Assembly: GCA_026671195.1 (NCBI GenBank)
Contig: JAPOHD010000030.1
Span: 57,719 to 121,718 of the forward strand
From: Draconibacterium aestuarii
GTDB lineage: Bacteria > Bacteroidota > Bacteroidia > Bacteroidales > Prolixibacteraceae
Direction of reading: 5' to 3'
DNA: 64,000 nt
Below the pieces are notes generated by a model, which was given only the letters and a program-made list of their open reading frames with translations, searched no databases and was not told where the DNA came from. Of this stretch, positions 13,271 through 30,220 are shown one piece after another. How positions within the stretch are numbered: the stretch's first letter is position 1; each line of letters begins with the position of its first letter. The position numbers were made by a program, and so were the translations under genes.

Positions 13271-14038
13271 ATGCTTGCAAATCAACGTCGTGATAAAATA
13301 CTTGAGCTTCTGAAAGAAGATGGTTCAGCTAAAGTGATCAAACTGTCCAAAATATTTAAGGTTTCTGAAGTAACAATTCGTCAGGATCTGGAAAAACTTG
13401 AAAAGGATGGTTTTATAAAACGCGAACATGGAGGAGCTTTCCTGAAAAACGTGGAAGACAGTGTAAAATCGTTTATTCCGCTTAATAAGGACAACCTGGA
13501 CAAAAAACAGATTATTGGCAAAGTAGCTGCCGATCTGATTGAAACAGGTGAAATCATCATTCTTGATTCGGGTTCTACAACCACAGAAATTGCCAAAAAC
13601 CTGATCGGCAGAAAAGGAATTACTGTAATTACAAATGCCTTAAACATTGCATTGATGTTGGGGGCAGAATCGGGAATTGAAGTAATTGTTACAGGTGGCG
13701 AATTTAAGCCGCCAACACTTTCACTTACCGGGCAAAAAGCAGCTACTTTTTTTGAAGACATTCATGTGGACAAGTTATTCCTTGCAACAGCCGGAATTTC
13801 GTTACGATCGGGACTTACCTACCCAAGTATCAGCGACATTGTTGTCAAAAAAGCAATGATTGATGCAGCCGACACTACCTACCTGGTTGCCGACTCAAGC
13901 AAAATTGGGAAAAATGCTTTTGCAAGTCTGGGTGCACTGTCTTTAATCGATTACATCATCACCGATGAAGCTATTGATAAAAACCGGCTTCAGCTTTTCC
14001 GCGATCACGAAATAGAAATATTAATTGCCAAAAAATAA
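13271..14038 (+). CDS. DeoR-family transcriptional regulator
   Basis: This 255-residue regulator has an N-terminal DeoR helix-turn-helix (SKIFKVSEVTIRQDLEKLEKD, residues ~27-47, followed by GFIKREHGGA) and a C-terminal sugar-phosphate sensor domain of the ribose-5-phosphate-isomerase-like fold (ILDSGSTTTEIAKNL, GGEFKPPTLSLTG, KVADSSKIGK-like segment LVADSSKIGKNAF). The family usually represses sugar catabolic operons until a phosphorylated intermediate binds. It is the first gene of the kinase/isomerase/transketolase/ABC operon, 20 bases ahead of the kinase, so it is most likely its local repressor. The effector would be the kinase product; this is inference. Confidence 0.93.
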   Translation: MLANQRRDKILELLKEDGSAKVIKLSKIFKVSEVTIRQDLEKLEKDGFIKREHGGAFLKNVEDSVKSFIPLNKDNLDKKQIIGKVAADLIETGEIIILDSGSTTTEIAKNLIGRKGITVITNALNIALMLGAESGIEVIVTGGEFKPPTLSLTGQKAATFFEDIHVDKLFLATAGISLRSGLTYPSISDIVVKKAMIDAADTTYLVADSSKIGKNAFASLGALSLIDYIITDEAIDKNRLQLFRDHEIEILIAKK

Positions 14039-14058
14039 AAAGATTACCAGCCTGTTTT

Positions 14059-15552
14059 ATGAATCAATCAAAACAATACATAATAACCATCGATCAAAGT
14101 ACATCAGCAACAAAAGTAATGTTGTTTAATAAAAAGGCTGAACTGGTCGAACGAATCAGCATTCCGCATCAGCAGTACTATCCGCAGGATGGTTTTGTTG
14201 AACACGATGCAGCGAAAATATTCAGCAATGTTATTTCAGGCTTAAACACCTTGATTTCGAAAACAAAAGTACAGGAATCGGACATTGCAGGAATTGGCAT
14301 TACCAACCAACGTGAAACCTCACTGATTTGGGATAAAACCTCAGGAAAACCAGTTGCAAATGCGGCAGTATGGCAATGCCAGCGTGGAGCCGCGCTTTGC
14401 AAAGAGCTGCTCGAAACCGCATGGAATCAAAAAATTAAAAAGAAAACCGGTTTGCGCATCGATCCCTATTTTTCGGCAAGCAAATTAAGCTGGATCATGC
14501 AAAATACAGCGGGACTGGCAGAAAAAGCCCAAAGCGGGGATTTAATGCTGGGAACCATGGACAGTTGGTTGCTGTACAAACTTACGGGTGGCAAAGTGCA
14601 TGCCACCGATTATTCGAACGCCTGCCGTACCATGCTTTTTAATATACATACTTTGGAGTGGGACAGCGAAATTCTGGACTTGTTCCAATTGCATGCTTCC
14701 ATGTTTCCTGAAGTAAAATTTAGCGATGAAGTGTTCGGCTACACCGATTCTTCGGTTGTTTTTGAAAATCCAATAGCCATTTCAGGTCTGATTGGTGACT
14801 CGCACGGGGCCCTCTTCGGTCAAAATTGTTTTACTCCCGGCATGGCAAAATCTACCTACGGAACCGGCTCTTCTATGATGATGAACATTGGAGAAGACGC
14901 ACTGGATGCTCCTGAAGGTTTGGTAACATCGGTTGGTTATAGCCGCGACAAAAAGATACATTACGTTTTTGAAGGGAATATTCACTGTACCGGAGACACA
15001 CTTAACTGGTTAAAAAACGAAGTTCAGCTAATCTCCGATGCTTCGGAAACAGAGCCGCTGGCCAATTCGGTAGAGAATAACAACGGAGTGTACCTTGTTC
15101 CGGCTTTTGTTGGGTTGGGAGCTCCTTACTGGGACAACGATGCACGCGCTTGTCTTTCGGGAATGCCGCGAAACACCACCAAAGCACACATTGTAAGAGC
15201 TGCGTTGGAAAGTATCGCCTACCAGGTAAAAGATCTGGTTTCGCTGATGGAAGAAAAAGGGGGTATTCCCTTAAAAGAACTGCGTGTTGATGGCGGGCCA
15301 ACCCGTAATAATTTTTTGATGCAGTTTCAATCGGATATACTAAGCCGCGAAGTAGTTTGTTCCAACATCGAAGAAATTTCGGCACTGGGTGCAACTTTTT
15401 TGGCCGGACTTGCAACAGGTTTCTGGAACGATCTGGAGGAAATAGAAGCGCTTCGAAAAGCAGGAAAAGTATTCCAACCAAAAATGGAAAAAGAAACAAT
15501 AGCAATTCTGGAAGCAGGATGGAAAAAGGCGGTTGAGCGAACACGACTTTAG
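14059..15552 (+). CDS. FGGY-family carbohydrate kinase, glycerol-kinase-like with altered pocket
   Basis: The 497-residue protein follows E. coli GlpK almost block for block (GITNQRETSLIWDKTSGKP, WQCQR, DPYFSASKLSWI, TDYSNACRTMLFNIHTLEWD, VDGGPTRNNFLMQFQSDIL). GlpK binds glycerol with R83, E84, W103, Y135, D245 and Q246, and F270 walls the pocket. Here R85, E86, W105, Y137 and the catalytic D247 are kept, but Q246 is replaced by Ser248 (GDSHGA) and F270 by Ser272 (YGTGSSMM). That gives a larger, more polar pocket, so a ketose such as a pentulose is more likely than glycerol. It lies between the DeoR regulator and an aldose-isomerase-like gene, consistent with ketose phosphorylation. Glycerol or another polyol cannot be excluded from sequence. 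Confidence 0.85.
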   Translation: MNQSKQYIITIDQSTSATKVMLFNKKAELVERISIPHQQYYPQDGFVEHDAAKIFSNVISGLNTLISKTKVQESDIAGIGITNQRETSLIWDKTSGKPVANAAVWQCQRGAALCKELLETAWNQKIKKKTGLRIDPYFSASKLSWIMQNTAGLAEKAQSGDLMLGTMDSWLLYKLTGGKVHATDYSNACRTMLFNIHTLEWDSEILDLFQLHASMFPEVKFSDEVFGYTDSSVVFENPIAISGLIGDSHGALFGQNCFTPGMAKSTYGTGSSMMMNIGEDALDAPEGLVTSVGYSRDKKIHYVFEGNIHCTGDTLNWLKNEVQLISDASETEPLANSVENNNGVYLVPAFVGLGAPYWDNDARACLSGMPRNTTKAHIVRAALESIAYQVKDLVSLMEEKGGIPLKELRVDGGPTRNNFLMQFQSDILSREVVCSNIEEISALGATFLAGLATGFWNDLEEIEALRKAGKVFQPKMEKETIAILEAGWKKAVERTRL

Positions 15553-15579
15553 AATAATAAAAACATAATAAAAAATACA

Positions 15580-16995
15580 ATGAAACAGACAAAACAAACA
15601 TTTGGCGTAATTATAGCCACACGTAACATTTTTAATTCGAAACTGGCTACAGAAGCACGAGCCAAAGTGCTTCACAAACTCGACAAAATGGGATTCGGAA
15701 CGGTAATTTTACCTGCAGAAGAAACACCAACAGGAAACATTGAAGGTTATGCTGATGCAGTAAAATGTGCAAAATATTTCAAAGACCATGCTGATGTTAT
15801 TGAGGGAATCGTTGTGGTTCTGCCTAATTTTGGCGACGAACTCGGAGTGGTAAATTCCATTAAAATGTCGGGTTTAAACGTACCTGTTTTGGTTCAGGCA
15901 GTTGACGACGATAATGATAAAGTGGATGTTAAAAGCCGCCGCGATGCGTTCTGCGGAAAACTATCGGTTTGTAACAACTTTTATCAGTACGGAATTAAAT
16001 TTACCGATACCATTTACCACACTTACAGTCTCGACAGCGAAGAATTTACAACAGACATCAACAAATTTGCAGGCATTTGCCGCGTTGTTAAAGGCTTGCA
16101 AGGATTACGTGTTGGAGCCATCGGAACCCGTCCAATCGGTTTTCAAACCATGCGTTTCAGCGAAAAGTTATTGCAAAAATACGGCATTACCATTGTTCCG
16201 GTTGATATGTCGGAAATTATTGCTGCAGCCGAAAAAATCAGCGACACCGATCCTGCTGTTCTCGCTAAAGTGGAAGACATTCAAAACTACGGAACGTGCA
16301 CCATTGCACACAAAGGCAAAATTGCAAAACAAGCACGTTTTGGTTTGGCAGTTGAAAACTGGATTCAGGAAAATAACATTGATATCTCAGCCATTCAATG
16401 TTGGGAATCGCTGGAGAAAAACTTTGGTTGTGCAGCCTGTGTATCCATGAGTATGATGGGCGAAAAACTGATGCCGTCGGCTTGTGAAGTTGATGTGGCC
16501 GGAACCATTTCGATGTATGCACTGGCACTGGCAGCGCAAACTCCTTCGGCCATTTTAGACTGGAACAACAATTTTGCAGAAGACCGCAACAAGGTAGTTT
16601 GCACTCACTGCAGTAATTATCCAAAATCATTTTTCCAAAATGAAATTGAAATTGGAAGCCTCGACGTACTGGGAACTGTTTTGGGTAGTGAAGATACTTT
16701 TGGTGCCGTAAAAGGAAAAGTTGCAGCCGGAAATATGACTTACTTCCGTATCTCAACCGACGATACTAAAGGTTTGATAAAATCGTACCTGGGCGAAGGA
16801 GAAATGACTGACGATCCTTATGGAATGGACGGCGGTATTGCAGTTTGCGAAATTCCAAATCTGCAAAACCTGATGAAATACATGTGCAAAAACGGATTTG
16901 AACACCATGTTGCAATGGTTCGTGGTAATGTTTCTGAAATTCTGGAAGAAGCCATCGGAAACTACCTTGGCTGGGATTTGTACAAGCACGAATAA
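15580..16995 (+). CDS. L-fucose/L-arabinose isomerase-family sugar isomerase
   Basis: The 471-residue protein resembles the fucose/arabinose isomerase superfamily: N-terminal alpha/beta domains (~1-170), a central segment (RVGAIGTRPIGFQTMRFSE) and a C-terminal catalytic part. Probable metal or catalytic residues are E276 (QCWESL), E303/D305 (ACEVDVAG) and H442/H443 (EHHVAMVRGN). It is shorter than FucI (~590) and close to AraA (~500), and is not an orthologue of either by eye. These enzymes interconvert aldoses and ketoses with a divalent metal. Placed after an FGGY kinase and before a split transketolase, it should convert the imported aldose to the ketose that the kinase phosphorylates. The substrate is not known; D-apiose is the favoured candidate from context. 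Confidence 0.82.
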   Translation: MKQTKQTFGVIIATRNIFNSKLATEARAKVLHKLDKMGFGTVILPAEETPTGNIEGYADAVKCAKYFKDHADVIEGIVVVLPNFGDELGVVNSIKMSGLNVPVLVQAVDDDNDKVDVKSRRDAFCGKLSVCNNFYQYGIKFTDTIYHTYSLDSEEFTTDINKFAGICRVVKGLQGLRVGAIGTRPIGFQTMRFSEKLLQKYGITIVPVDMSEIIAAAEKISDTDPAVLAKVEDIQNYGTCTIAHKGKIAKQARFGLAVENWIQENNIDISAIQCWESLEKNFGCAACVSMSMMGEKLMPSACEVDVAGTISMYALALAAQTPSAILDWNNNFAEDRNKVVCTHCSNYPKSFFQNEIEIGSLDVLGTVLGSEDTFGAVKGKVAAGNMTYFRISTDDTKGLIKSYLGEGEMTDDPYGMDGGIAVCEIPNLQNLMKYMCKNGFEHHVAMVRGNVSEILEEAIGNYLGWDLYKHE

Positions 16996-17040: not shown

Positions 17041-17118
17041 TGTCATTTCGAAGGAGAAACGACTGAGAAATCTGTTCCAGATGTAGGAGATTTCTCCTCA
17101 TTCTTCGTCGAAATGACA
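17041..17118. repeat. Palindromic REP-like intergenic element inside the operon
   Basis: Outer arms TGTCATTTCGA (17041-17051) and its reverse complement (17108-17118) enclose a second pair built on GAGAAATCT / AGATTTCTC, giving a 78-bp imperfect hairpin. The sequence is of the dispersed REP type common in Bacteroidota intergenic regions. It fills most of the 146-157-bp gap between the isomerase and transketolase genes, the largest gap in this otherwise tight operon, and could form a stem in the transcript. Confidence 0.75.
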
Positions 17119-17150
17119 TCTTACAGTCTCACTAATAATTATTGGAAGAA

Positions 17151-17990
17151 ATGAATAAATATACTGATCTGGAACTCCAGATAAAATCTGTCAAATACAG
17201 AAAAGCACTTTTAAAATACATCAAAATCGCCAATGCAGGTCACACAGGTGGAAGCCTTTCGTGTACCGACATTTTAAACGTTTTATACAACGATGTAATG
17301 AATGTGTCACCTGAAAATTTTCACGATAACAACCGCGATCGATACATTCAAAGCAAAGGGCACTCGGTTGAAGCATTTTACGTGGTATTAGCCGACAAGG
17401 GATTTTTCCCTGCAAGCGATTTGAAAACCATGTGTAAATATCAGTCGAAATACATCGGACATCCTACCCGAAAAGTAAACGGCATTGAATTTAATACCGG
17501 CGGACTTGGACACGGTTTGCCAATTAGTGCAGGTATTGCAAAAGCCGGAAAAATGGACAATGCCCCATATAAAGTATTTACCTTACTGGGCGACGGCGAA
17601 CTGGCAGAAGGTTCAAACTGGGAAGGAGCCATGATGGCCGCACATTACAAACTTGATAATCTTGTTGCTATTCTCGATCATAATGCTTTGCAAATTACAG
17701 GCACCAACCGCGAAGTGTGCAGCCCCTATCCCATTGATGAAAAATTTAAAGCGTTTGGCTGGGAAGTTCTGGAGGTTGATGGAAACAACATTTCTCAATT
17801 AAGAGAAACGTTTGCAAAAGTTCCATCGCATGAAGGCAGACCAACCTTAATAATTGCCAATACGGTAAAAGGGAAAGGTGTGAGTTTTATGGAAGATGTA
17901 AAAAAATGGCACCACGGAGTTCCTTCCGACGAACAATACGAACAAGCCATAAATGAACTAGATGCAGAACTTGAAAAATTAGAAGCATGA
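17151..17990 (+). CDS. Split transketolase, N-terminal (TPP-binding) subunit
   Basis: The ~279-residue protein is the thiamine-diphosphate-binding half of a transketolase. It has the GDG...N TPP/Mg motif (GDGELAEG at 147-154, N178) and the family's conserved histidines (H31 in AGHTGG, H71, H103, H121). An upstream in-frame TTG exists at 17142, but ATG 17151 preceded by GGAAGAA is the better start. The stop overlaps the start of the C-terminal subunit (ATGA at 17987), indicating translational coupling and a 1:1 complex. The pair would transfer a two-carbon unit from a ketose phosphate to an aldose phosphate. In this operon the likely donor is the kinase product. Confidence 0.92.
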   Translation: MNKYTDLELQIKSVKYRKALLKYIKIANAGHTGGSLSCTDILNVLYNDVMNVSPENFHDNNRDRYIQSKGHSVEAFYVVLADKGFFPASDLKTMCKYQSKYIGHPTRKVNGIEFNTGGLGHGLPISAGIAKAGKMDNAPYKVFTLLGDGELAEGSNWEGAMMAAHYKLDNLVAILDHNALQITGTNREVCSPYPIDEKFKAFGWEVLEVDGNNISQLRETFAKVPSHEGRPTLIIANTVKGKGVSFMEDVKKWHHGVPSDEQYEQAINELDAELEKLEA

Positions 17991-18934
17991 CAGCAACAAA
18001 ATTAGATATGGGCAGAGCCAACCTGGAAGAGTTTTCTGCCACATTGATTGAATTAGGCAAAAACGATAAAAACATTATAGCGGTAACAAGCGATTCAAGA
18101 GGTTCCGGAAAACTAGTGCCTTTTGGAGAGCAGTTGCCGGAACAGATTGTAGAAGTAGGCATTGCCGAACAAAATTTGGTAGGCGTTGCGGCAGGTCTTG
18201 CTTCGGCGCAAAAAAAGGTGTTTGCTGTATCGCCGGCTTGTTTCCTTACCGCCCGTTCGTTGGAACAGGCTAAAAACGATGTAGCCTACTCAAATATGCC
18301 GGTAACTTTAATCGGAATAAGTGCAGGAGTTAGTTACGGAGCATTGGGCTCAACCCACCATTCGTTGCACGATGTGGCAGTATTTCGTGCCATTAATAAC
18401 ATTGATATTATTGTTCCGGCTGATAATTTTGAAACCCGTGAAGCAATAAAAGCTGCATCAGAATCGAAAAAACCCATTTTTATAAAATTTGGGAAAAAAG
18501 CGATGCCTATACTTCCACGTTTGGAACAGTCATTTGAAATAGGCAAAGCCTCAACCATTTGCGAAGGTAGCGATGTAACGTTTATTGCCTGTGGCGAAAC
18601 CGTTGCACCAGCTTACGAAGCGGCTCAAACTCTGCAAGAAAAAGGAATCAGTGCCGAAGTAATAAGCATGCACACCATAAAACCACTCGATAAAGAAGCA
18701 GTGATAAAATCGGCGTCGAAATGTAAAGTTGTAATTACGGTAGAGGAACACAGTATTTACGGAGGGCTGGGCGAAGCATGTGCATCGTTGCTCATGCAGG
18801 AAAAAATTTACAAACCATTTAAAATTGTTGGATTACCTGATGAAGAAACGGTTGCCGGCTCGCAGAACGAAATTTTTAATCACTATGGAATTTCTGCTGA
18901 AGGTCTTTCAAAAACAGCTTTAGAACTATTGTAA
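17987..18934 (+). CDS. Split transketolase, C-terminal subunit
   Basis: The 315-residue partner of the preceding gene contains the pyrimidine-binding domain with catalytic Glu61 (VEVGIAEQNLVGVAAGLA), the central SLEQAKNDVAYSNMPVTL and HHSLHDVAVFRAI segments, and the C-terminal domain (VTFIACGETVAPAYEAA ... VEEHSIYGGLGEA). Start ATG 17987 overlaps the upstream stop by four bases. Two-subunit transketolases with the same layout occur in several dedicated sugar pathways, including as I recall the apulose-4-phosphate transketolase of D-apiose catabolism. A second, divergent copy of this pair lies at 56250-58089. Confidence 0.92.
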   Translation: MTATKLDMGRANLEEFSATLIELGKNDKNIIAVTSDSRGSGKLVPFGEQLPEQIVEVGIAEQNLVGVAAGLASAQKKVFAVSPACFLTARSLEQAKNDVAYSNMPVTLIGISAGVSYGALGSTHHSLHDVAVFRAINNIDIIVPADNFETREAIKAASESKKPIFIKFGKKAMPILPRLEQSFEIGKASTICEGSDVTFIACGETVAPAYEAAQTLQEKGISAEVISMHTIKPLDKEAVIKSASKCKVVITVEEHSIYGGLGEACASLLMQEKIYKPFKIVGLPDEETVAGSQNEIFNHYGISAEGLSKTALELL

Positions 18935-18989
18935 ATATGAATAAAACTTAACCAATAATTGCCCGAAAAGGCAATCATCAAACGTGAAC

Positions 18990-19934
18990 ATGAAAAGACA
19001 AAAACTGATCAAACTTATATTTCTACTGATTATTCTTTCCGGAACATTTGCTTGTTCCAGAAAGCATAACAATCCGTCTTCCAACAAAATTGCTGTTGTA
19101 ATTTCCACCTTAAATAATCCCTGGTTTGTTGTGTTGGCCGAATCAGCCGCCCAAAAAGCAAAGGATCTGGGTTACGAAGCTCAAATTTTTGATTCCCAGA
19201 ACGATCCCGCAAAGGAGGCCGAACATTTCGACAACATTGTTGCCATGGGTTACAGTGCCATTCTTTTTAATCCGACCGATGCCGATGGTTCAGTATTGAA
19301 CGTGAAACGTGCCAAAACAGCCGGTATTCCAACTTTTTGTATGGACCGCGAAATAAACTCGCAGGATGCAGCTACAACGCAATTGCTTTCCGACAACTTT
19401 ACCGGTTGTGTAAAACTGGGGCAATACTTTGTAAAACAAATGAACAAAAAAGGCAATTACGTGGAAATTTTTGGTTTGGTTGGCGACAACAATACATGGA
19501 ACCGTTCCGGCGGTTTTCACAGTGTAGTTGACGAATTTCCGGAACTAAAAATGGTTGCCCGGCAAAGTGCCGATTTCGACCGGAACAAAGCCATGGATGT
19601 GATGGAAACCATTATGCAGGCCCAACCTGAGATTGATGCAGTTTTTTGCGGGAACGATGCCATGGCAATGGGCGCTTATCAGGCGGTTCTTGCTGCCGGG
19701 AAAGCCGATAAAATAAAAGTGTTTGGTTTCGATGGTGCCGACGATGCAATACAAGGAATAGCCGATGGCAAAATTGCGGCGACCGTTATGCAATTTCCGG
19801 TACTTATGGCACAAACCTCAGCCGTTTTAGCAGACGAGTACATAAAAGGCAAACGCGATTTCGACACAAAAACACCCGTTGAAGTTATTTTGGTGACACC
19901 CGAAAATGTAAATAAATACCTTCCTAAAAAATAA
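18990..19934 (+). CDS. Ribose-type ABC sugar-binding lipoprotein (RbsB-like)
   Basis: This lipoprotein (lipobox ending TFAC; ATG 18990 preferred to GTG 18984) is the periplasmic binding component of a CUT2-type sugar importer. Aligned by eye with E. coli RbsB, nearly all ribose-contacting residues are kept: N13 (TLNNPWF), D89/R90 (MDRE), R141 (NRSGGF), F164 (SADF), N190 (GNDAMA), F214/D215 (FGFDG) and Q235 (VMQFP). F15 is replaced by Trp. This argues for a small pentose-like ligand with a modified pocket. It is 55 bases after the transketolase and heads the transporter block. Ribose itself is possible, but no ribokinase is present. Confidence 0.9.
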
Positions 19935-19939: not shown

Positions 19940-20566
19940 ATGAATAAAACAATAAAATACATTGTTGGAATAGTGGTGCTTATTCTGGTGCTCTACTTTT
20001 CTTTCGATATTCAAAAACTGGATGCCTACAAAGCGGCACATTCACAAGTTCAGTTTGATGCATCCGAGTTCGCACAGAACTTTTGGGAGACACAACTACC
20101 TGAATGTATTAACGATGCGCCCGAAATAAATGCAGTAACAAAACAAATGGAACTAAATCCGGAAATTGTATTTCAAAACCATGCACACAAACTGGGAATA
20201 TCTAAAACGCATTATCTTTTTGTAAAAGGATCAGGAACTATTGAATCTGTTGAGGATGAGTTTTTGCTGGTACGAACAGGCGAAAATACCAACATTCAGA
20301 TTGCCACCGATTTTATATTCGGGAACGCGGTACGCGATGGTTCCGGTAAAGTCGATATCAACAAATTTGTAAATATGACTGATTTTAACAACGTTTCGGT
20401 GGCCTTAAATAAGCTGGCCAAGGAAAAGGTTGTTTCACGTTTACAAAAATCAGCAAAAGCCGGTATGACCATCGAATTTGCAGGGGCTGCCGAAATCAAT
20501 GAAAAAAATAGTGATGTAACAACACTCCGGATTATTCCGGTTAATGCAAAACTAAGCGATGAATAA
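19940..20566 (+). CDS. DUF2291 (COG5618-like) periplasmic/membrane-anchored protein
   Basis: The 208-residue protein has a single N-terminal membrane anchor (TIKYIVGIVVLILVLYFSF) and a soluble domain with the DUF2291 signature FGNAVRDGSGKVDINKF...DFNNVSVALNKLA. The family is found beside ribose-type ABC importers but has no settled function. It lies five bases after the binding protein and overlaps the ATPase start by eight bases, so it is translated as part of the transporter operon. A role as an accessory to binding-protein docking or to substrate processing is speculation. Confidence 0.85.
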   Translation: MNKTIKYIVGIVVLILVLYFSFDIQKLDAYKAAHSQVQFDASEFAQNFWETQLPECINDAPEINAVTKQMELNPEIVFQNHAHKLGISKTHYLFVKGSGTIESVEDEFLLVRTGENTNIQIATDFIFGNAVRDGSGKVDINKFVNMTDFNNVSVALNKLAKEKVVSRLQKSAKAGMTIEFAGAAEINEKNSDVTTLRIIPVNAKLSDE

Positions 20567-22091
20567 GCAAAAACAATCGCAACCAATACTGGAGGTTAAA
20601 AATGTATCGAAAGATTTTTCGGGTGTTTATGCATTGAAAAATGTGAATATGGAGATTTTTCCAGGACAGGTTACCGCTATTATTGGCGAAAACGGTGCCG
20701 GAAAATCAACCTTGATGAAAATTGTTTCCGGAGTGTACACCGATTACGACGGGAAAGTAGAACTAAACGGAGAAGAAATAACTTTCAAAAATCCGAAGGA
20801 AGCTGCTGAAAAAGGAATAGTAATTATTCACCAGGAACTCAACCTGATTCCGCATTTAACAATTACCGAAAACCTGTTTCTGGGGCAGGAAATTACCAAT
20901 AAATTCGGATTGCTCGATTATTCAACAATGAATAAAAAAGCAAAAGAACTGTTACACCGATTACAATTGGATATTAATCCTGCAACTCCTTTAAACCAAC
21001 TTCGTGTGGGGCAGCAACAGCTGGTTGAAATTGCCAAAGCACTGCTGCTCGAGTCGAAAGTACTGATTATGGACGAACCCACATCCGCCATAAGTGATCA
21101 CGAAGTAGAGCTGCTTTTTTCAATCATAAACGATTTACGAGCCAAAGGAGTAGCCATTGTTTATATCTCTCATAAATTAAAAGAACTGTTCGAAATTGCC
21201 GACCGTTACGCCGTGTTACGCGACGGAGAAAATGCAGGGGCAGGCATGTTAAAAGGTACATCGCGTGACGAATTGATTCAGATGATGGTGGGCAGGGATT
21301 TAAGGAACAGTTTTTCGAAACAGGAAATCAAGCATGGAGACGAAATATTGCGCGTGGAAAATCTGAGTTTTCAGAATCCGGAAAATAAAAAGGATTACCT
21401 GGTTCACGATGTCAGTTTTTCGCTGAAAAAAGGTGAGATATTAGGTATTGCCGGTTTAATGGGAGCCGGAAGAACCGAAGTGCTGGAAGCCATTTTTGGA
21501 ATGTATCCGAAATACGTAACAGGAAAAATTACGGTGGATGGGCGCGAAATGCAGATAAGGAGTGTCAACGACGCCATTTCTGCAGGCATAGGACTTGTAC
21601 CCGAAGACCGTAAACTTCAGGGGCTTATTCTGAATATGGATGTGGAAAAAAACAACACACTCGCAAGTCTCGACCAAGTCTCGAAATTTGGTTTTATCAG
21701 CAAAATAAAGGAAGAGAAATTAAGCAAACACTACGTTGATAAAATGAATACCAAAGTTTCATCCTCAAAAATGAGCGTACAGAAACTGAGTGGTGGAAAC
21801 CAGCAAAAAGTGGTAATTGCAAAATGGCTGGCAACCCATCCTAAAATATTACTGCTCGATGAGCCAACCCGGGGAATTGATGTGGGAGCCAAATCGGAAA
21901 TCTACAAACTGATAAATGAACTTGCCGCACAGGGAATGGGAATTATTGTTGTTTCGTCTGAACTCCCTGAAATATTGGCCATTTCGGATATAATCATTGT
22001 TCTGTCCGAATCGAAATTAACTGCAAAACTAAACCGGAATGAAGCCAGCGAAGAAGTAATTATGCAAGCTGCGCTCGTTGAAAAAGAATAA
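20559..22091 (+). CDS. Sugar ABC transporter ATPase (RbsA-like, two ABC domains)
   Basis: The 510-residue protein has two fused nucleotide-binding domains, as in RbsA. Domain 1 has Walker A GENGAGKST, the signature-like LRVGQQQLVEIAKAL and Walker B VLIMDEPTS. Domain 2 has a degenerate Walker A (GLMGAGRTE), signature LSGGNQQKVVIAKWL and Walker B ILLLDEPTRGIDVGAK. Such asymmetry is normal for the CUT2 family. It energises the importer with the downstream permease and upstream binding protein. ABC sugar importers of this type are uncommon in Bacteroidota. Confidence 0.95.
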   Translation: MNKQKQSQPILEVKNVSKDFSGVYALKNVNMEIFPGQVTAIIGENGAGKSTLMKIVSGVYTDYDGKVELNGEEITFKNPKEAAEKGIVIIHQELNLIPHLTITENLFLGQEITNKFGLLDYSTMNKKAKELLHRLQLDINPATPLNQLRVGQQQLVEIAKALLLESKVLIMDEPTSAISDHEVELLFSIINDLRAKGVAIVYISHKLKELFEIADRYAVLRDGENAGAGMLKGTSRDELIQMMVGRDLRNSFSKQEIKHGDEILRVENLSFQNPENKKDYLVHDVSFSLKKGEILGIAGLMGAGRTEVLEAIFGMYPKYVTGKITVDGREMQIRSVNDAISAGIGLVPEDRKLQGLILNMDVEKNNTLASLDQVSKFGFISKIKEEKLSKHYVDKMNTKVSSSKMSVQKLSGGNQQKVVIAKWLATHPKILLLDEPTRGIDVGAKSEIYKLINELAAQGMGIIVVSSELPEILAISDIIIVLSESKLTAKLNRNEASEEVIMQAALVEKE

Positions 22092-22101: not shown

Positions 22102-23076
22102 ATGAATACACAACAGTTGAAACAATACATCATTAAATTTCAATCCATCATTGCACTGCTGCTCATGTGCATCGTACTCAGTTTTCTTTCCGACAGTTTT
22201 CTTTCGGGAGAAAATGCGTGGAATGTGATGCGACAGATATCGGTTAATGTAATTATCTCGGTGGGTATGACCTTGATAATTTTGACCGGAGGAATTGATC
22301 TTTCCGTAGGTTCCATTCTTGCCCTTTCGGGAGCAGTTACTGCCACCTTATTAAAGTTTGGTGCCGAATTTATCGACATGAACCTATACATTGGATTTAC
22401 CCTTATGGGAGCTTTGGTTGGCGGCACATTGGCCGGTACCGTTCTGGGCTGGTTTAACGGATTAACCATTACACGCTTTAAAGTCCCGCCTTTTGTGGCT
22501 ACCCTGGCCATGCTCACCATTGCACGTGGATTAACCATGTTACTTACCGGCGGTTTTCCAATTACGGGTCTGGGAAACAACATGGCATTTATCGGTACCG
22601 GTTGGTTTTTGGGAATTCCAATGCCTGTTTGGATTTCGGCTTTAATTGTTTTGGCAGCCGCAGTTGTAACCAAAAAAACGACACTGGGTCGCCATATTTA
22701 TGCCATTGGCGGGAACGAAACTGCTGCTGCTTTGTCGGGGCTAAAAATCAAAAAAGTAAAGATGATGGTGTATGCCATTGCCGGTGCTTTAGCCGGTATT
22801 GGTGGTATTATTGTTACTTCAAGGCTCGACTCGGCACAACCCAACGCCGGATTTGGCTTTGAACTGGATTCCATTGCGGCAGTTGTAATTGGCGGCACTT
22901 CCCTTTCGGGCGGAAAAGGTACAATTATGGGAACCGTTCAGGGCGCTCTTATCATCGGTATTTTAAACAACGGCCTGGTACTTTTAAACGTCTCTCCTTT
23001 CTGGCAACAGGTTATTAAAGGTTTTGTAATTCTGCTGGCTGTTGTTATTGAAAAATTTAATTCAAAAGAAGAATAG
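22102..23076 (+). CDS. Sugar ABC transporter permease (RbsC-like)
   Basis: The 324-residue polytopic membrane protein has the RbsC features: LTGGIDLSVGSILALSGAV, a cluster of about eight to ten hydrophobic helices, the ATPase-contact segment TTLGRHIYAIGGNETAAALSG and the C-terminal SIAAVVIGGTSLSGGKGT. It lies ten bases after the ATPase gene. It should form a homodimeric inner-membrane channel for the pentose-like ligand. Confidence 0.95.
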   Translation: MNTQQLKQYIIKFQSIIALLLMCIVLSFLSDSFLSGENAWNVMRQISVNVIISVGMTLIILTGGIDLSVGSILALSGAVTATLLKFGAEFIDMNLYIGFTLMGALVGGTLAGTVLGWFNGLTITRFKVPPFVATLAMLTIARGLTMLLTGGFPITGLGNNMAFIGTGWFLGIPMPVWISALIVLAAAVVTKKTTLGRHIYAIGGNETAAALSGLKIKKVKMMVYAIAGALAGIGGIIVTSRLDSAQPNAGFGFELDSIAAVVIGGTSLSGGKGTIMGTVQGALIIGILNNGLVLLNVSPFWQQVIKGFVILLAVVIEKFNSKEE

Positions 23077-24582: not shown

Positions 24583-24605
24583 AATCAAAACAAAAACATA
24601 AGAAT

Positions 24606-25979
24606 ATGAACAAACTAAAAACCATAGTTATTGCACTTCTTTTAACCAGTTTTGCTTATGTACTGAATGCGCAGGAAAACCAGGCGGACCGAATTCCCGA
24701 ATACGAAATTCCATACGAATTGCCATCAGTAGAAAATGTAAAAGAAGTATTAAACCGAATTCGGATGTACTATGAATCCACAAGTCTACAACATTTAATC
24801 GATTCAAAAACCGGCGAAAAAATAAGCGATTTTAATACATTCAATCCCAATGCAGTTCCGTCGCCTGGCTTTTCCGGAGAATGGTCGTACACGCATGGAG
24901 TCGTTCTTTCAGCATTCGATTACATTACAAAAGTTACAGGCGACAAAACTTTCTTTAACAACAACACAAAGTTTTATGAGTATGTAATCGAAAACCTCCC
25001 CTATTTTCAAAACAACTCGGACAAAATAAAAAGTTCAAAAATTGGAAACTGGGGAAGAATTTTGGAGTTTGAAGCATTGGATGATTGTGGTTCGATTACT
25101 GCAGCAATGATTAAAACCTATTTAATAACAAAAGACGACAAATACCTCGAAATCATCAATCGCACAGCAGAACACATCTCTAATAATCAGTTTCGTTTGG
25201 AAGATGGTACACTGGCCCGCAACCGCCCGCAATATAAATCGGTTTGGGCCGACGATATGTACATGAGTGTACCGTTTTTAATAAATATGGGTGTACTAAG
25301 CGGCGACAAAGCCTATTTTGATGATGCAGTAAAACAGGTGCTTCAAATGGCCGACCGTTTATACATTCGCGAAAAAGAATTGTTCGATCACGGCTGGAAT
25401 GTAACTTCCGGCGATTATGATCCTCGCTTTTACTGGGGCCGTGCCAATGGCTGGGTTTTAATGTCGATGGCAGAAGTATTGAGTATTTTACCTGAAGATT
25501 ACCAGGGACGCGATAAAATACTTCACCTCTATCGTTCAATGGTTCGCAGCCTGGCCAACCTTCAGGATGGCGACGGATTCTGGCACAACCTGCTCGACAA
25601 AAACGACACCTACACCGAAACATCGTGTACCGCCATGTTTACCTTTGTCATTGCAAAAGGCATAAACGAAGGTTGGATCAGCCATGTTTATGGTCCGGTT
25701 GCCCTAACCGGCTGGAATGCACTGCAAACTCGTGTACTTGAAAATGGTGCGGTGGATGGAACCTGCGAGGGCACAACTTTTGCTCACGACAATACCTATT
25801 ATTATCACCGCGGAAAAAGCATTTATGCAACCCACGGATATGGTCCGGTTCTTTACGCCGGTGCAGAAATGATTCGCTTACTTCAAAACAATAAAATTGA
25901 AATAATCAATACCAATTTTGGTTCAATAAACAGTACTTTTCATTTTCTCTTAAAAAGTGAATGGCCTGAAAAAAAATAG
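24606..25979 (+). CDS. GH105-like unsaturated glucuronyl/galacturonyl hydrolase, secreted
   Basis: The 457-residue protein has a signal peptide (ending LNAQ, ~22) and an alpha/alpha-barrel of the GH105 class. Landmarks are SPGFSGEWSYTHGVVLSAFDY, the probable catalytic Asp in SVWADDMYMSVPFLINMG, RFYWGRANGWVLMSMAE and TETSCTAMFTFVIAKG. It is longer than the classical ~380 residues, mainly at both ends. It should trim the unsaturated uronic acid left by the PL1 lyase encoded next. It is the second GH105 member in this window and is not close to the one at 9100. Confidence 0.85.
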   Translation: MNKLKTIVIALLLTSFAYVLNAQENQADRIPEYEIPYELPSVENVKEVLNRIRMYYESTSLQHLIDSKTGEKISDFNTFNPNAVPSPGFSGEWSYTHGVVLSAFDYITKVTGDKTFFNNNTKFYEYVIENLPYFQNNSDKIKSSKIGNWGRILEFEALDDCGSITAAMIKTYLITKDDKYLEIINRTAEHISNNQFRLEDGTLARNRPQYKSVWADDMYMSVPFLINMGVLSGDKAYFDDAVKQVLQMADRLYIREKELFDHGWNVTSGDYDPRFYWGRANGWVLMSMAEVLSILPEDYQGRDKILHLYRSMVRSLANLQDGDGFWHNLLDKNDTYTETSCTAMFTFVIAKGINEGWISHVYGPVALTGWNALQTRVLENGAVDGTCEGTTFAHDNTYYYHRGKSIYATHGYGPVLYAGAEMIRLLQNNKIEIINTNFGSINSTFHFLLKSEWPEKK

Positions 25980-26021: not shown

Positions 26022-27422
26022 ATGAGAAAATATATTTCTAATTCAGTACTCCTGATGATTCTAATTTTGTTGCCAGCATTAAGTTATTGTCAACAACTGG
26101 CATTTCCAACTGCCGAAGGATATGGAAAATACTCCAAAGGCGGTCGTGGCGGAGTGGTATATGAAGTAACGAACCTTAATGATTCCGGCGAAGGAAGTTT
26201 ACGAGCTGCAGTTGAAGCATCCGGTCCGCGTACTGTGGTTTTTCAGGTATCAGGTAACATCGAACTTGAAAGTACGCTTAGTATTAAAAATCCGTACATA
26301 ACAATTGCAGGTCAAACGGCTCCCGGAGATGGCATTTGTATAAAAAAATACCCCCTGAGCATTGATGCGGATCATGTTATTATCAGGCATATAAGAGTGA
26401 GGTTCGGAAATGAATCGGGTGATGATTCAGATGCGGTATCCAGCAGATATACCAAACATATTATTTTAGATCATATTTCAGCGAGTTGGAGTGTTGATGA
26501 AACCATGTCGGTTTATCATTGCGACAGCATTACCGTACAGTGGTGTATCGTTTCGGAAAGTATGTTCAATTCGAACCATATAAAAGGTGCTCATGGTTTT
26601 GGAGGAATTTGGGGATCAAATTACGGCACCTACCACCATAATCTCATCGCGCACCATGGAAGCCGCAATCCACGTATGGCATCCGGTTCAGGTTATACCG
26701 ATTATCGAAATAACGTTCTGTACAACTGGGGTTACAATACTTGCTATGGAGGTGAAAACCAACAAGTCGGAAATCCTAAATTTGCTTTCTCGCAGTTTAA
26801 CATCGTAGCCAATTATTACAAACCCGGACCGGCAACTCAACCAGGTGAAGTATCTTATCGCATTTGTAATCCATCAATGCGCAATACTACAGATGATTTT
26901 GGGCTTTGGTATGTTGCCGATAATGTTATTGAAGGAAACAAAGAGGTAAGTTCCAACAACTGGAATGGAGGCGTTCAACCTCAGGGAGGTAAAAACAAGC
27001 TTTCATTTGTAAAAATGGAAAAACCTTGGCCGTCGATGCCAATTAACCAGCAAACCGCCAAAGAAGCCTTCGAATTAGTTTTGAAAAATGCAGGAGCTAC
27101 TTTGCCCAAAAGAGATCCGATTGACACCCGCATTTGTAAAGAAGCGAAAGGTGGATTTGCTACTTTTGAAGGAAGTTCATACAAACAAAATAAATCGTTA
27201 GCTGATCGATCGAAAAAAAGCGGCATAATTGACTCACAAGCAGATGTTGGAGGCTGGCCGGAGTTGAAAAGCTCGACAGCCCCGGTCGATACAGATCACG
27301 ATGGAATGCCGGACTCGTGGGAAAAGAAAAACGGACTTAATGCAAATGACGCTGCGGACAGAAATAAGGTGGCCGAAAATGGATACACCATGCTCGAGAA
27401 ATATTTAAATAGTATTGACTAA
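26022..27422 (+). CDS. PL1 pectate lyase with C-terminal calcium-binding repeat
   Basis: The 466-residue secreted protein (signal peptide ending LSYCQ) is a polysaccharide lyase family 1 enzyme, cleaving polygalacturonan by beta-elimination with calcium. It shows the parallel beta-helix start ([17 protein letters not shown]), [11 protein letters not shown], the [21 protein letters not shown] strand, [18 protein letters not shown] and [15 protein letters not shown] with the probable catalytic Arg. The C-terminus has a thrombospondin-3/EF-like [12 protein letters not shown] repeat and ends [10 protein letters not shown]. Its product suits the GH105 encoded just upstream, in the same operon as the sugar importer. 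Confidence 0.92.
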
Positions 27423-27439
27423 TACATAAAGATCGAAAC

Positions 27440-28888
27440 ATGCAAAACCAATTGATTTTCTTATTGAAAAGAGCAATTAAAAATATATTTTTTATCGTGC
27501 TCGCATTGGTGTTTTCATCAGCTGCCGGAATTGAAAAACCAAGAATATTTGTGTTAACCGACATCGAAAATGAACCTGACGATGCCATGTCGATGGTGCG
27601 CTTTTTAGTGTATGCCAACAATTACGACATAGAAGGTTTGGCAGCTACTACCTCAATTCACCAGCAAAAAAGAGTGGCTCCCGAACGTATCCGCCAAATA
27701 GTTGATGCCTACGGGAAAGTTCGCGACAATCTTGAAAAACACGAAATTGGGTTTCCAGCAGCAGATTTCGTACGATCTAAAATTACAGAAGGACTTCCGG
27801 AATATGGAATGCAGGCAGTTGGCAAAGGAAAAGATTCGCCGGCGTCTGAAGCACTTATTCAAGCTGCCGACCAGGACGATTCGCGGCCTTTGTGGGTAAC
27901 AGCCTGGGGAGGCCCGAATGTGTTGGCACAAGCGCTTTGGAAAGTTAGGGAAACCCGCACTGCAAAAGAACTGGCAACCTTTGTTTCCAAACTTCGGGTA
28001 TATACCATTTCCGACCAGGACGACAGTGGGCCATGGATTCGAAAAGAATTTCCGGATCTCTTTTATGTTGTCAGTCCCGGATTTAATGCAGGCGGCGCTT
28101 ATCATCATGCCACCTGGAGTGGTATAAGTGGCGATTATTTTCATGCCCGTTGTGCCGGCGCCGATTTTTCGTTGGTAACCAACGAATGGCTCGAAACAAA
28201 TATTCGCAGAAAAGGACCACTTGGTGCTGAATATCCTTTCTGGGAATATTTAATGGAAGGTGATACTCCCTCGTTTCTGAATTTAATAAACAATGGATTA
28301 AGTAATCCTGAACATCCTGATTGGGGTGGCTGGGGCGGACGTTACGAATTGTACACGCCCAGGATGCAGAAGTGGCATCTGTATCCTGAAACACGGCCGA
28401 TTTGGACAGATGCAGAAGATGAAGTATTGGGCATTGACGGACGCTGGCATGAAGGAAACCATGAAACTATCTGGCGCTGGCGTGAAGCGTACCAGAATGA
28501 TTTTTCAGCTCGAATGGACTGGACAATAAAATCGGTTGATAAAGCCAATCATCCACCGGTTCCGGTAATTGAGGGAGAGAAAAACAGATCTGCCCAAAAA
28601 GGGGAACGTATAAAATTAAGTGCAAAAGCATCAAACGATCCGGATGGCGATGCATTGTCGTACGAATGGTTCTGCTATAGAGAAGCCGGTACTTTTCCGA
28701 TATCGAGTGCACGTAGTGGACAGCCCATTGAAATTAAAAATTTCGATCAGGCAGAAGCCTGGTTTGATATACCAACAAGCCGGGTGATGGATCCGGGCGT
28801 TGGTACCATCCACATTATTCTTGCCGTAACCGACCATGGTTCTCCCAGACTTACACGCTATCAAAGACTAATTATAACTGTTGAATAA
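27440..28888 (+). CDS. DUF1593/Sde0182-type nucleoside-hydrolase-like protein (copy 2)
   Basis: The 482-residue secreted protein (N-terminal hydrophobic segment ~15-29) has the same layout as copy 1: Asp cluster [15 protein letters not shown] (D41, D47, D48), [29 protein letters not shown], the GWGGRYEL segment, and a C-terminal Ig/cadherin-like domain ([16 protein letters not shown]). Unlike copies 1 and 3 it has no obvious lipobox cysteine. The Asp cluster is closer to the classical nucleoside-hydrolase DxDxxxDD arrangement than copy 1. It is separated by six bases from copy 3, so the two are coupled. Confidence 0.82.
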
Positions 28889-28894
28889 CTATTT

Positions 28895-30220
28895 ATGACA
28901 CCTATTAAAAAATCATTCTTCCCCACAATCCTCTTCGTTTTATCTTTCGTAGTGCTAAGCTCCTGTGGCACAAAGTCCAAAAGCCATTCGAATACAATTA
29001 ACGAAGAAAACAATCAAGCATACCGTGTAATTGTATCGTCTGATATTGGCGGAACTGATCCTGATGATTTCCAATCGATGATCCATCTTTTTCTTTATGC
29101 AGACACGCTTGATATTGAAGGAATAATCTCCTCTCCTTTTGGTCCGGGGAAAAAAGAACACATTCTGAATGTGATCGATCAGTACGAAAAAGATTATCCG
29201 AATTTAAAAACGTATTCTGATAAATATCCTTCGGCTGATTCACTTCGCCATATTACCAAACAAGGCGCAGAAGAAGTTGTAGATTACAGTGGAATTGGAA
29301 AACCTTCGGAAGGATCGGAGTGGATAATTGAATGCGCCCGTAAAAACGATCCTCGCCCGCTTTACGTTTTGGTTTGGGGAGGCATTGAAGATCTGGCTCA
29401 GGCTTTGCACGATGCTCCCGATATTTTGCCAAAACTGCGTGTGTATTACATTGGTGGCCCCAATAAAAAATGGACGCCCGACGCGTATCAGTACGTTGCT
29501 GATAATCATCCCGATCTTTGGATCATTGAATCGAATGCCACTTATCGTGGCTGGTTTACCGGTGGCGACCAATCAACAGAATGGAGCAACACCGGTTTTC
29601 CTGAAAAATACATAAGCGGACAGGGAGCCATGGCCGATTTTTTTATGACTCAACTGGATGGAACCATTAAAATGGGCGACACTCCATCTCTGGCCTGGCT
29701 GTTAAAAGGCGATTTGGAAGATCCATCAAAACCAGGCTGGGGTGGACAGTATGTACGTGCCTGGGATCGTCCCCATTATCTGTTTACCGAAATGCCATCG
29801 GCAACTGACAGCATTCAGGAATTCTCCATTCTTGAAATTGCCCTTTCTGTTGAAAATGATTTACCACAGAATCCGGAAGCCAAACTTCTTGTTGAAAATC
29901 AGGCACTGGCCGGAACTTTTACGGAAGACGGTACTGTTCGATTTCGTTTTTCTCCAAAATCAGATAAAATATTTAAGTTTAAAATAGAAAGTAATGTTGC
30001 CGAATTAAATGGCAAATTGGGAGAAGTAACCGTATTTATTCCACCTCCATACCTTGCTGAACAGGCATCGGAAAAGTACCCCAACTGGTGGACCGATGAT
30101 CCTAACACGGAACTTATGGAAGGGAAACATATAGGAGCTAAAACGGTGAGCAAATGGAGAAAAGAGTTTTTAACTGACTTTGCCAAACGCATCCATCGTT
30201 GTGCAAATACTGCCGAATAA
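28895..30220 (+). CDS. DUF1593-type nucleoside-hydrolase-like lipoprotein (copy 3)
   Basis: The 441-residue lipoprotein (lipobox ending LSSC, Cys24) has the Asp cluster SSDIGGTDPDDFQSM (D50, D55, D57, D58), closest of the three to true nucleoside hydrolases (DTDPGxDD). It shares YVLVWGGIEDLAQAL and GDTPSLAWLLKG with the others. Its C-terminal part (FTEDGTVRFRFSPKSDK) is different and lacks the DPDGDxLxxxW Ig-like repeat. It is the last gene of the DeoR-led operon, followed after 33 bases by a strong terminator. Confidence 0.82.
   Translation: MTPIKKSFFPTILFVLSFVVLSSCGTKSKSHSNTINEENNQAYRVIVSSDIGGTDPDDFQSMIHLFLYADTLDIEGIISSPFGPGKKEHILNVIDQYEKDYPNLKTYSDKYPSADSLRHITKQGAEEVVDYSGIGKPSEGSEWIIECARKNDPRPLYVLVWGGIEDLAQALHDAPDILPKLRVYYIGGPNKKWTPDAYQYVADNHPDLWIIESNATYRGWFTGGDQSTEWSNTGFPEKYISGQGAMADFFMTQLDGTIKMGDTPSLAWLLKGDLEDPSKPGWGGQYVRAWDRPHYLFTEMPSATDSIQEFSILEIALSVENDLPQNPEAKLLVENQALAGTFTEDGTVRFRFSPKSDKIFKFKIESNVAELNGKLGEVTVFIPPPYLAEQASEKYPNWWTDDPNTELMEGKHIGAKTVSKWRKEFLTDFAKRIHRCANTAE

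What the first reader, a model, noticed from the sequence alone, without database searches (positions are those of the whole stretch)
13271..30220. Candidate D-apiose (or other unusual pentose) release, import and transketolase catabolism operon
Seen: one co-oriented run encodes a DeoR regulator, FGGY kinase, fucose/arabinose-isomerase-like enzyme, split transketolase, complete ribose-type ABC importer with DUF2291, then three nucleoside-hydrolase-like lipoproteins, a GH105 and a PL1. Known: an isomerase - FGGY kinase - two-subunit transketolase route exists for D-apiose (apiose to apulose, apulose-4-phosphate, then transketolase), and apiose occurs in RG-II pectin, the kind of substrate degraded by this window. 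Inference: the operon is a self-contained scavenging system for D-apiose or a similar free pentose, coupled directly to pectin lysis. The use of an ABC importer by a Bacteroidota pectin degrader, with dedicated surface hydrolases, would be a new arrangement.
Basis: partly seen in the sequence, partly recalled or inferred. Interest (0 to 1): 0.8.

Follow-up and report, generated by a model that had tools for sequence, protein, structure and literature searches.

The report
Pectin-linked D-apiose import and breakdown operon
This stretch is an operon that most likely imports and burns the rare branched plant sugar D-apiose by a known enzyme route, and it points to an orphan family of secreted nucleoside-hydrolase-like proteins as possible new enzymes that cut apiose off pectin.

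Summary
In detail: 14 co-oriented genes (13271-30220), closely packed between two terminator-like hairpins, encode a DeoR regulator, FGGY kinase, L-fucose/L-arabinose-isomerase-fold enzyme, split transketolase, a ribose-type ABC importer with DUF2291, GH105, a pectate lyase and three PF07632 nucleoside-hydrolase-like proteins (two with a lipobox). D-apiose is the best-supported sugar. The kinase keeps glycerol-contact residues of glycerol kinase but has Ser-His-Ser where 18 of 18 sampled glycerol kinases have Gln-Gln-Phe. The kinase of the E. coli D-apiose cluster, whose carriers grow on D-apiose (PMC13001218), has the same change. The same gene set, with DUF2291 importer, occurs on Sodalis, Rahnella and Klebsiella plasmids; in Listeria the module sits beside an apiosidase-like (PF13204) gene. 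The genome's only PF13204 gene lies about 32 kb upstream in an RG-II-like cluster. Route and importer type are therefore known; the setting is a variant. The new lead is PF07632: it lies in the fetched flanks of 20 of 80 related isomerase genes, follows SusC/SusD in three Bacteroides/Parabacteroides loci, and keeps the aspartates of a nucleoside-hydrolase metal site, while a solved relative is reported inactive on nucleosides (PMC8910321). These may be apiofuranosidases. The binding protein still looks ribose-type. Nothing was tested biochemically.

The parts
13068..13107 (+). terminator-like hairpin (16 pairs) upstream of the operon
13271..14038 (+). DeoR-family regulator
   Evidence: PF00455 168.9 bits, PF08220; homologues over 50% identical in 35 of the 80 isomerase loci
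14059..15552 (+). FGGY kinase, predicted D-apulose kinase (ApsK/AplK type)
   Evidence: PF00370/PF02782; pocket REWYD-SHS; E. coli apiose cluster kinase REWLD-SHS; 18 of 18 glycerol kinases REWYD-QQF
15580..16995 (+). L-fucose/L-arabinose isomerase-fold enzyme, predicted D-apiose isomerase (ApsI type)
   Evidence: PF02952 110.1 bits; model pLDDT 87.3 matches L-arabinose and L-fucose isomerases, TM 0.70-0.83; 46.5% identical to the isomerase of the Sodalis cluster
17041..17118 (.). palindromic genomic repeat in the isomerase-transketolase gap
   Evidence: 18-nt arms; 45 match rows in the genome, five of them the other strand of a place already listed
17142..17990 (+). transketolase N-terminal subunit (AptA type)
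   Evidence: PF00456 153.6 bits; 46% identical to E. coli SE15 AptA
17987..18934 (+). transketolase C-terminal subunit (AptB type)
   Evidence: PF02779/PF02780; 38% identical to SE15 AptB
18984..19934 (+). sugar-binding lipoprotein of ABC importer
   Evidence: PF13407 191.5 bits; 360 bits to 2fn8; lipobox TFAC
19940..20566 (+). DUF2291 protein
   Evidence: PF10054 149.8 bits; DUF2291 is also annotated in the E. coli and plasmid apiose-type clusters
20559..22091 (+). sugar ABC importer ATPase (two ABC domains)
   Evidence: PF00005 two stretches
22102..23076 (+). sugar ABC importer permease
   Evidence: PF02653 154.3 bits
23107..24582 (+). NH1: PF07632 nucleoside-hydrolase-like lipoprotein, candidate furanosidase
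   Evidence: 235.4 bits; lipobox TIAC; conserved Asp set
24606..25979 (+). GH105/GH88-type unsaturated uronyl hydrolase, signal peptide by eye
   Evidence: PF07470 262.3 bits
26022..27422 (+). pectate lyase, signal peptide by eye
   Evidence: 208 bits to PDB 9buj
27440..28888 (+). NH2: PF07632 nucleoside-hydrolase-like protein, signal peptide by eye, no lipobox
   Evidence: 383.4 bits; model matches 2yhg, TM 0.76/0.89
28895..30220 (+). NH3: PF07632 nucleoside-hydrolase-like lipoprotein
   Evidence: 198 bits; lipobox LSSC
30254..30289 (+). terminator-like hairpin (15 pairs) then CTTTTTTCTA

Best explanation
The operon releases, imports and catabolises D-apiose. Inferred steps: secreted pectate lyase and GH105 open the galacturonan backbone, and the three PF07632 proteins (or the PF13204, GH140-type enzyme about 32 kb upstream) set free apiose from apiose-bearing pectin (RG-II core or apiogalacturonan). 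The ABC importer brings the pentose in. The isomerase makes D-apulose, the FGGY kinase makes D-apulose 4-phosphate, and the split transketolase moves its two-carbon unit to glyceraldehyde 3-phosphate, giving dihydroxyacetone phosphate and xylulose 5-phosphate (reactions recalled from the known D-apiose pathway). DeoR probably represses until a pathway phosphate appears. Shown here: gene content, operon layout, homology and pocket signature of the kinase, fold and putative metal residues of the isomerase, recurrence of the module, and its neighbourhood with PF13204 and PF07632 genes. Not shown: any activity, the transported sugar, or the linkage cut by PF07632.
For: Kinase pocket: glycerol kinase contact residues R83, E84, W103 and D245 kept (Y135 kept or Leu/Asn), Q246-Q247-F270 replaced by S-H-S in the window kinase, in 66 of 67 kinases from related loci (the exception, L062, is a 20%-identical FGGY kinase of another kind), in Sodalis, Klebsiella, Rahnella and Monoglobus, and in the kinase of the E. 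coli SE15 D-apiose cluster (Listeria S-E-S). 18 of 18 glycerol kinases, one from the same genome, have Q-Q-F and form a clade (97/99) that excludes the window kinase. PMC13001218 (passages): strains carrying the same cluster grow on D-apiose. The SE15 cluster has importer with DUF2291, kinase and split transketolase; three plasmid clusters have these plus an isomerase 45.6-46.5% identical to the window's. Listeria: isomerase-TK-TK-kinase-PTS-PF13204; Monoglobus: isomerase-TK-TK-kinase-DUF5060 protein, whose relatives carry PF13204 matches. PF13204-like gene in 12 of 80 loci (four confirmed by Pfam). Own genome: single PF13204 gene at C24:37734-38735 beside a BT_1020-like gene; ribokinase and a separate glycerol kinase elsewhere.
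Against: At ten pocket positions (recalled from ribose-binding protein) the window's binding protein is identical to the Thermotoga ribose-binding protein, and it is only 31-36% identical to the SE15 and plasmid binding proteins; SE15 differs at five of the ten. In Thermotoga maritima a ribose operon with two predicted D-arabinose enzymes and a transketolase is induced on ribose and on xylose (PMC3750489, passages). No PF13204 gene is in the operon or the window. In the 395-genome sample PF13204 is only weakly tied to the isomerase (6 of 19 vs 41 of 376, p 0.017, or 0.046 without the own genome; not corrected for kinship), and no PF13204 match there lies within 20 kb of an isomerase on the same contig (read). 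The window kinase is slightly closer to E. coli GlpK (45.8%) than to SE15 AplK (38.7%) in overall identity, and the module kinases are not resolved as one clade. The E. coli cluster that supports growth lacks the isomerase.
Confidence: 0.82

Rival explanations
1. Ribose (ribonucleoside) scavenging operon: the nucleoside-hydrolase-like proteins free ribose, the ABC importer takes ribose, the isomerase and kinase make ribulose 5-phosphate, and the transketolase feeds the pentose phosphate pathway.
For: Binding protein pocket and nearest solved relative are ribose-type; a ribose operon of Thermotoga holds two predicted D-arabinose enzymes and transketolase (PMC3750489 passages); PF07632 is nucleoside-hydrolase-like; a PF01156 gene over its cut-off (41.3 vs 34.2 bits) lies in one related locus, L065.
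Against: No ribokinase in the operon; a ribokinase over its cut-off lies elsewhere. A solved PF07632 relative is reported inactive on purine and pyrimidine nucleosides (PMC8910321). Kinase signature equals that of the E. coli D-apiose cluster. PF13204 and pectin enzymes are among the neighbours.
Confidence: 0.1
2. D-arabinose (or another aldopentose or tetrose) route: the isomerase is a D-arabinose isomerase, the kinase a D-ribulokinase.
For: Fold matches include Bacillus pallidus D-arabinose isomerase; Thermotoga enzymes in a like operon were predicted for D-arabinose (PMC3750489 passages).
Against: No D-arabinose source is known to me in pectin; a dedicated split transketolase is not needed after ribulose 5-phosphate; identity to solved isomerases is 10-14%, so the fold does not carry the specificity; kinase signature as above.
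Confidence: 0.05
3. The catabolic half is for apiose, but the PF07632 proteins are non-catalytic furanose-binding surface proteins or cut another pectin furanoside (for example aceric acid or arabinofuranose). This is a rival to the PF07632 part only and overlaps the best explanation.
For: The Sde_0182 domain is described as inactive on nucleosides and as a furanose-interacting module (PMC8910321); 25 of 33 PF07632 genomes in the phylum sample lack the isomerase.
Against: Four aspartates that match a nucleoside-hydrolase metal site by motif are invariant in 25 of 25 aligned proteins; in L060, L065 and L069 the downstream genes scanned beside the module showed no other glycosidase family except the PF01156 gene of L065 (most upstream genes were not scanned).
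Confidence: 0.5

Closest known systems
D-apiose degradation I (apsI, apsK/aplK, aptA, aptB with ABC importer; Carter et al. 2018, not held, cited through PMC13001218)
   Same: Isomerase, FGGY kinase with the S-H-S pocket, split transketolase, ABC importer with DUF2291. PMC13001218 states that Bacteroides were reported to degrade apiose.
   Different: DeoR instead of the 'sugar-binding transcriptional regulator' of the enterobacteria; the E. coli cluster lacks the isomerase; here the operon also holds pectate lyase, GH105 and three PF07632 genes.
Thermotoga maritima ribose operon (PMC3750489, passages)
   Same: Ribose-type ABC importer beside two sugar enzymes and a transketolase; the T. maritima control genome also has PF13204 (over cut-off) and PF02952 matches.
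   Different: LacI regulator and ribokinase there; the T. maritima genes themselves were not compared except the binding protein.
GH140 apiosidase of RG-II loci (PF13204; BT1012 recalled)
   Same: Expected to free the same sugar; one copy on the same contig.
   Different: Different Pfam family from PF07632; not in the operon or the window.
Sde_0182 of Saccharophagus degradans (PDB 2yhg)
   Same: NH2 and NH1 share PF07632 plus the C-terminal Sde0182_C domain; NH2 model TM 0.76/0.89, 36% identity.
   Different: The passages seen in PMC8910321 tie Sde_0182 to no sugar pathway; NH3 shows no Sde0182_C match.

Membership tests
D-apiose transketolase pathway (ApsI/ApsK/AptAB) | isomerase, FGGY kinase and two-subunit transketolase in one cluster | tested here: met
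   same set in plasmid clusters
D-apiose transketolase pathway (ApsI/ApsK/AptAB) | kinase of the kind found in a cluster whose carriers grow on D-apiose | tested here: met
   shared pocket signature; outside the glycerol kinase clade. A single apulose-kinase clade was not resolved in the tree (open forks), and overall identity to SE15 AplK is 38.7%.
D-apiose transketolase pathway (ApsI/ApsK/AptAB) | isomerase orthologous to ApsI | tested here: inconclusive
   46.5% identity to the isomerase of Sodalis, whose AptA/AptB are 78/73% identical to SE15; the characterised ApsI sequence itself was not available
D-apiose transketolase pathway (ApsI/ApsK/AptAB) | enzyme activity and growth on D-apiose | not testable with these tools
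   needs assays
glycerol kinase GlpK | score over the TIGR01311 cut-off | tested here: met
   611.3 vs 590.35
glycerol kinase GlpK | Q246, Q247, F270 of the glycerol site (numbers recalled) | tested here: not met
   S, H, S; 18 of 18 GlpK rows have Q, Q, F
ribose (rbs) operon | ribokinase in the operon | tested here: not met
   absent from the operon; ribokinase at C20:533602
ribose (rbs) operon | ribose-type pocket of the binding protein | tested here: met
   identical to the Thermotoga ribose-binding protein at 10 of 10 positions (positions recalled)
sulfoquinovose isomerase SftI | NF048012 cut-off | tested here: not met
   111.7 vs 700 bits
PF07632 Sde182_NH-like | score over gathering cut-off in NH1-NH3 | tested here: met
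   235.4, 383.4, 198.0 vs 26.8
nucleoside hydrolase (metal-site aspartates) | Asp set of the Ca site conserved | tested here: met
   D41, D47, D48, D275 invariant in 25 of 25; equivalence to the D10/D14/D15/D242 site is by motif, recalled, not by superposition
GH140 apiosidase | PF13204 gene in the operon | tested here: not met
   none in the window; the genome's one match is at C24:37734-38735

The most novel reading that the evidence does not exclude
PF07632 (Sde182_NH-like, DUF1593) is a new family of O-glycosidases, made from the nucleoside hydrolase fold, that release branched-chain furanoses (foremost beta-D-apiofuranose) from pectin. The three divergent copies here (23-33% identical) act on three different apiosyl linkages, for example those of RG-II core or of seagrass and duckweed apiogalacturonan, in place of GH140.
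Probability: 0.4. Interest if true: 0.75.

Novelty: new variant of a known kind. Interest (0 to 1): 0.55.

Why it matters
Apiose links side chains A and B to the RG-II backbone and is the branch sugar of apiogalacturonan (recalled). A Bacteroidota operon that couples pectin lysis, an apiose-type ABC importer and the transketolase route widens where this sugar is consumed. The kinase signature gives a simple sequence marker that separates these kinases from the glycerol kinases they are annotated as (as in Listeria and Monoglobus). Above all, the recurring neighbourhood offers a concrete substrate hypothesis for PF07632, a family with a solved structure that a review describes as inactive on nucleosides (PMC8910321, passages).

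Tried and rejected
Tried without use: literature for 'apulose' (0 papers), 'DUF1593' (0 papers), Sde182 with PULs (10 of 119 papers listed, none of the ten holding the term Sde182), GH140/apiosidase (listing only), ribose scavenging (listing only). Carter 2018 and the Thermotoga kinome paper are not held. Phmmer of the isomerase against PDB gave only two designed TIM barrels, taken as chance. Considered and rejected: sulfoquinovose transketolase route (isomerase far below the SftI cut-off and no need for a kinase, the latter recalled); glycerol use (pocket, and a separate GlpK in the genome); fold matches of NH2 other than 2yhg (GH158, PKD and cadherin domains at TM 0.14-0.22 of the query; XopQ-type nucleoside-hydrolase-fold effector hits at TM 0.29-0.33). 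Counts mended on checking: one search lists PF13204-like hits in 13 of 80 loci, but the L025 hit is its PF07632 ORF, so 12 of 80, and 3 loci (L009, L011, L028) have both. L009, L028 and L055 are of the weaker DUF5060 type (49.7-65.1 bits to PF13204), and L011 and L033 match the DUF5060 query best. RibB beside DeoR remains unexplained.


Full report
What is there. The window is a stretch of a genome of 6.37 Mb in 69 contigs (contig C24, 57719-121718); its closest isomerase relatives are Bacteroidota. Fourteen genes on the + strand, 13271-30220, form one closely packed run between two long terminator-like hairpins. Pfam assigns DeoR, FGGY kinase, Fucose_iso_C, Transketolase_N, Transket_pyr/Transketolase_C, Peripla_BP_4, DUF2291, ABC_tran twice, BPD_transp_2, Sde182_NH-like three times and Glyco_hydro_88. 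The pectate lyase is seen by PDB similarity. The only wide gap, 146 bp between isomerase and transketolase, holds a palindromic repeat with 45 match rows in the genome.

Which sugar: kinase. The kinase scores as glycerol kinase, but the genome has a separate, better-scoring one at C45. On an alignment with E. coli GlpK and in a tree of 40 rows, all 18 glycerol kinases (E. coli, own genome, 16 from a phylum sample of 41 genomes) read R-E-W-Y-D-Q-Q-F at positions 83, 84, 103, 135, 245, 246, 247, 270 (positions recalled from the glycerol complex). The window kinase reads R-E-W-Y-D-S-H-S. So do 64 of 67 kinases of related loci; two more (L070, L077) differ only at 135, and the last, L062, is a 20%-identical FGGY kinase of another kind. 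These 67 are the FGGY hits aligned over more than 440 residues, one per locus, of 80 loci. The kinase of the E. coli SE15 D-apiose cluster reads R-E-W-L-D-S-H-S. The glycerol kinase clade has support 97/99 and excludes the window kinase; the module kinases themselves do not form one resolved clade, and Listeria and Monoglobus sit on long branches. Loss of the aromatic wall F270 with retention of the glycerol-contact residues fits a substrate that is a glycerol with an extra substituent, which apulose is; this is chemical inference.

Which sugar: clusters with evidence. PMC13001218 (passages read) reports a D-apiose cluster in the E. coli STc131 and STc14 lineages, names aplK, aptA and aptB in SE15, and shows growth on D-apiose for three E. 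coli strains and E. fergusonii carrying it and for Pectobacterium carotovorum; SE15 itself was the sequence query. The gene content in SE15 is ABC importer with DUF2291, kinase, regulator, aptA and aptB, with two oxidoreductases that the paper supposes to replace the isomerase apsI of Pectobacterium. Plasmid clusters of Sodalis, Rahnella and Klebsiella have the importer set plus two transketolase subunits, isomerase and kinase. The Sodalis subunits are 78/73% identical to SE15 AptA/AptB, and the isomerases are 45.6-46.5% identical to the window's. These were 3 of 14 plasmid records with an isomerase match; of the others I looked at two (Listeria, Monoglobus).

Which sugar: apiosidases. In Listeria the module is followed by a PTS gene and a PF13204 'Apiosidase-like' gene (313 bits). 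In Monoglobus pectinilyticus it is followed by a DUF5060 protein; that protein was not scanned itself, but its relatives in L009, L028 and L055 carry weak PF13204 matches over the cut-off. Of the 80 best isomerase loci (80 of 280 relatives kept), 12 hold a PF13204-like gene within the fetched flanks by phmmer, some of weak DUF5060 type. In L002 a GH95 gene precedes it. The own genome has one PF13204 gene, about 32 kb upstream of the operon on the same contig, next to a BT_1020-like protein.

Isomerase. AlphaFold model pLDDT 87.3, pTM 0.90; best matches are L-arabinose isomerases (TM about 0.8), then D-arabinose and L-fucose isomerases, at 10-14% identity. E303, D327, H343 and H442 are invariant in all 22 sequences aligned, from 17 genome loci and window, three enterobacterial plasmids, Listeria and Monoglobus, with the spacing of the known metal site (recalled).

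Importer. The binding protein scores 360 bits against the Thermotoga ribose-binding protein and 224 bits against 5ibq, a 'probable ribose' binding protein. At ten pocket positions (recalled) it is identical to the Thermotoga protein. So are 10 of 11 binding proteins from related loci; L007 departs at three. In the Sodalis, Klebsiella and Rahnella clusters eight of the ten are the same, one is Phe for Trp and one Trp for Phe; in SE15 five differ. So the pocket does not exclude ribose, and the importer may carry both.

PF07632. The family is found in the fetched flanks of 20 of 80 isomerase loci and in the same gene run as the isomerase in 13 of 77 loci where a run could be drawn. In L009 it is followed directly by an apiosidase-like gene. 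In a sample of 395 genomes of the phylum, own included, the isomerase is in 19 (over 440 bits; a 20th hit of 107 bits was dropped), PF07632 in 33, both in 8 (p 4e-5; without the own genome 7, p 2e-4). PF07632 and PF13204 (47 genomes over cut-off; 4 below it dropped) occur together in 19 genomes (p 2e-11). These tests ignore kinship. Within the sample only the own genome and G158 show PF07632 within 20 kb of the isomerase on one contig, and 25 of 33 PF07632 genomes lack the isomerase, so the family is wider than this pathway. In L060 and L065 (Bacteroides) and L069 (Parabacteroides) the module is followed by a permease, SusC, SusD, then PF07632 and PF00756 esterases in varying order. Among the genes scanned there the only other glycosidase-type match is a PF01156 gene in L065 (41.3 bits, cut-off 34.2); SusC, SusD and PF07632 were scanned by Pfam in L060 and taken by similarity in the other two, and most upstream genes were not scanned.

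PF07632 structure. Four aspartates (D41, D47, D48, D275 of NH2) are invariant in 25 of 25 aligned proteins; some rows read CDPELDD, close to the classic nucleoside hydrolase motif (recalled). The NH2 model (pLDDT 82.6) matches 2yhg. PMC8910321 (passages) says that protein keeps its Ca ion, is inactive on purine and pyrimidine nucleosides, and may be a furanose-interacting module. I propose apiofuranosides as the real ligand or substrate.

Against ribose. No ribokinase is in the operon; one lies at C20:533602 without a transporter among the six neighbours scanned. One nucleoside hydrolase of the classic family lies at C20:477607. [quoted passage not shown] maritima control scores for PF13204 over the cut-off and for PF02952 (whether over the cut-off is not told). 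Its genes were not compared here.

Novelty. The route and the importer type are known; the statement that Bacteroides degrade apiose is in print (PMC13001218, citing Carter 2018, which I could not read). New in this window is the arrangement with pectin enzymes and the PF07632 link. No paper linking PF07632 with apiose was found, which cover only openly licensed papers; one search found two papers on Sde182/Sde0182, of which I saw passages.

Noticed in passing
L001, L002, L004, L006, L010, L014, L030, L034, L037, L038, L040, L047-L049, L054, L055, L059, L061, L069, L074: A stand-alone RibB (3,4-dihydroxy-2-butanone 4-phosphate synthase, PF00926) with its conserved motifs lies next to a same-strand DeoR gene over 50% identical to the window's in 20 of the 21 loci holding it (of 80), 5-31 bp away in 18 of them, beside the apiose-type module. 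No role is known to me; no such hit in the window.
   Followed up: partly
window 56250-58089 (-): A second split transketolase (42% N subunit, 32% C subunit identity to the operon's) with an aminotransferase, a SASA-type esterase and a GH106 rhamnosidase nearby.
   Followed up: partly
window 17041-17118: Palindromic repeat of about 80 bp inside the operon; 45 match rows in the genome, one at C24:37349-37429 beside the PF13204 gene.
   Followed up: partly
contig C24 29038-39803 (L093): RG-II-type cluster upstream of the window: PF13204, BT_1020-like propeller protein, BT_3657-like N-terminal domain, BNR protein, DUF3826, DUF6298, xylose-isomerase-like protein.
   Followed up: partly
L084 8485-9948 and L085 13201-14688: Listeria and Monoglobus kinases annotated 'glycerol kinase' carry the S-(H/E)-S pocket and sit in apiose-type clusters, so the annotation is probably wrong.
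   Followed up: partly
window 45178-47197 (-): A VTC-domain protein (PF09359) near a DUF2490 protein within the pectin gene region.
   Followed up: no
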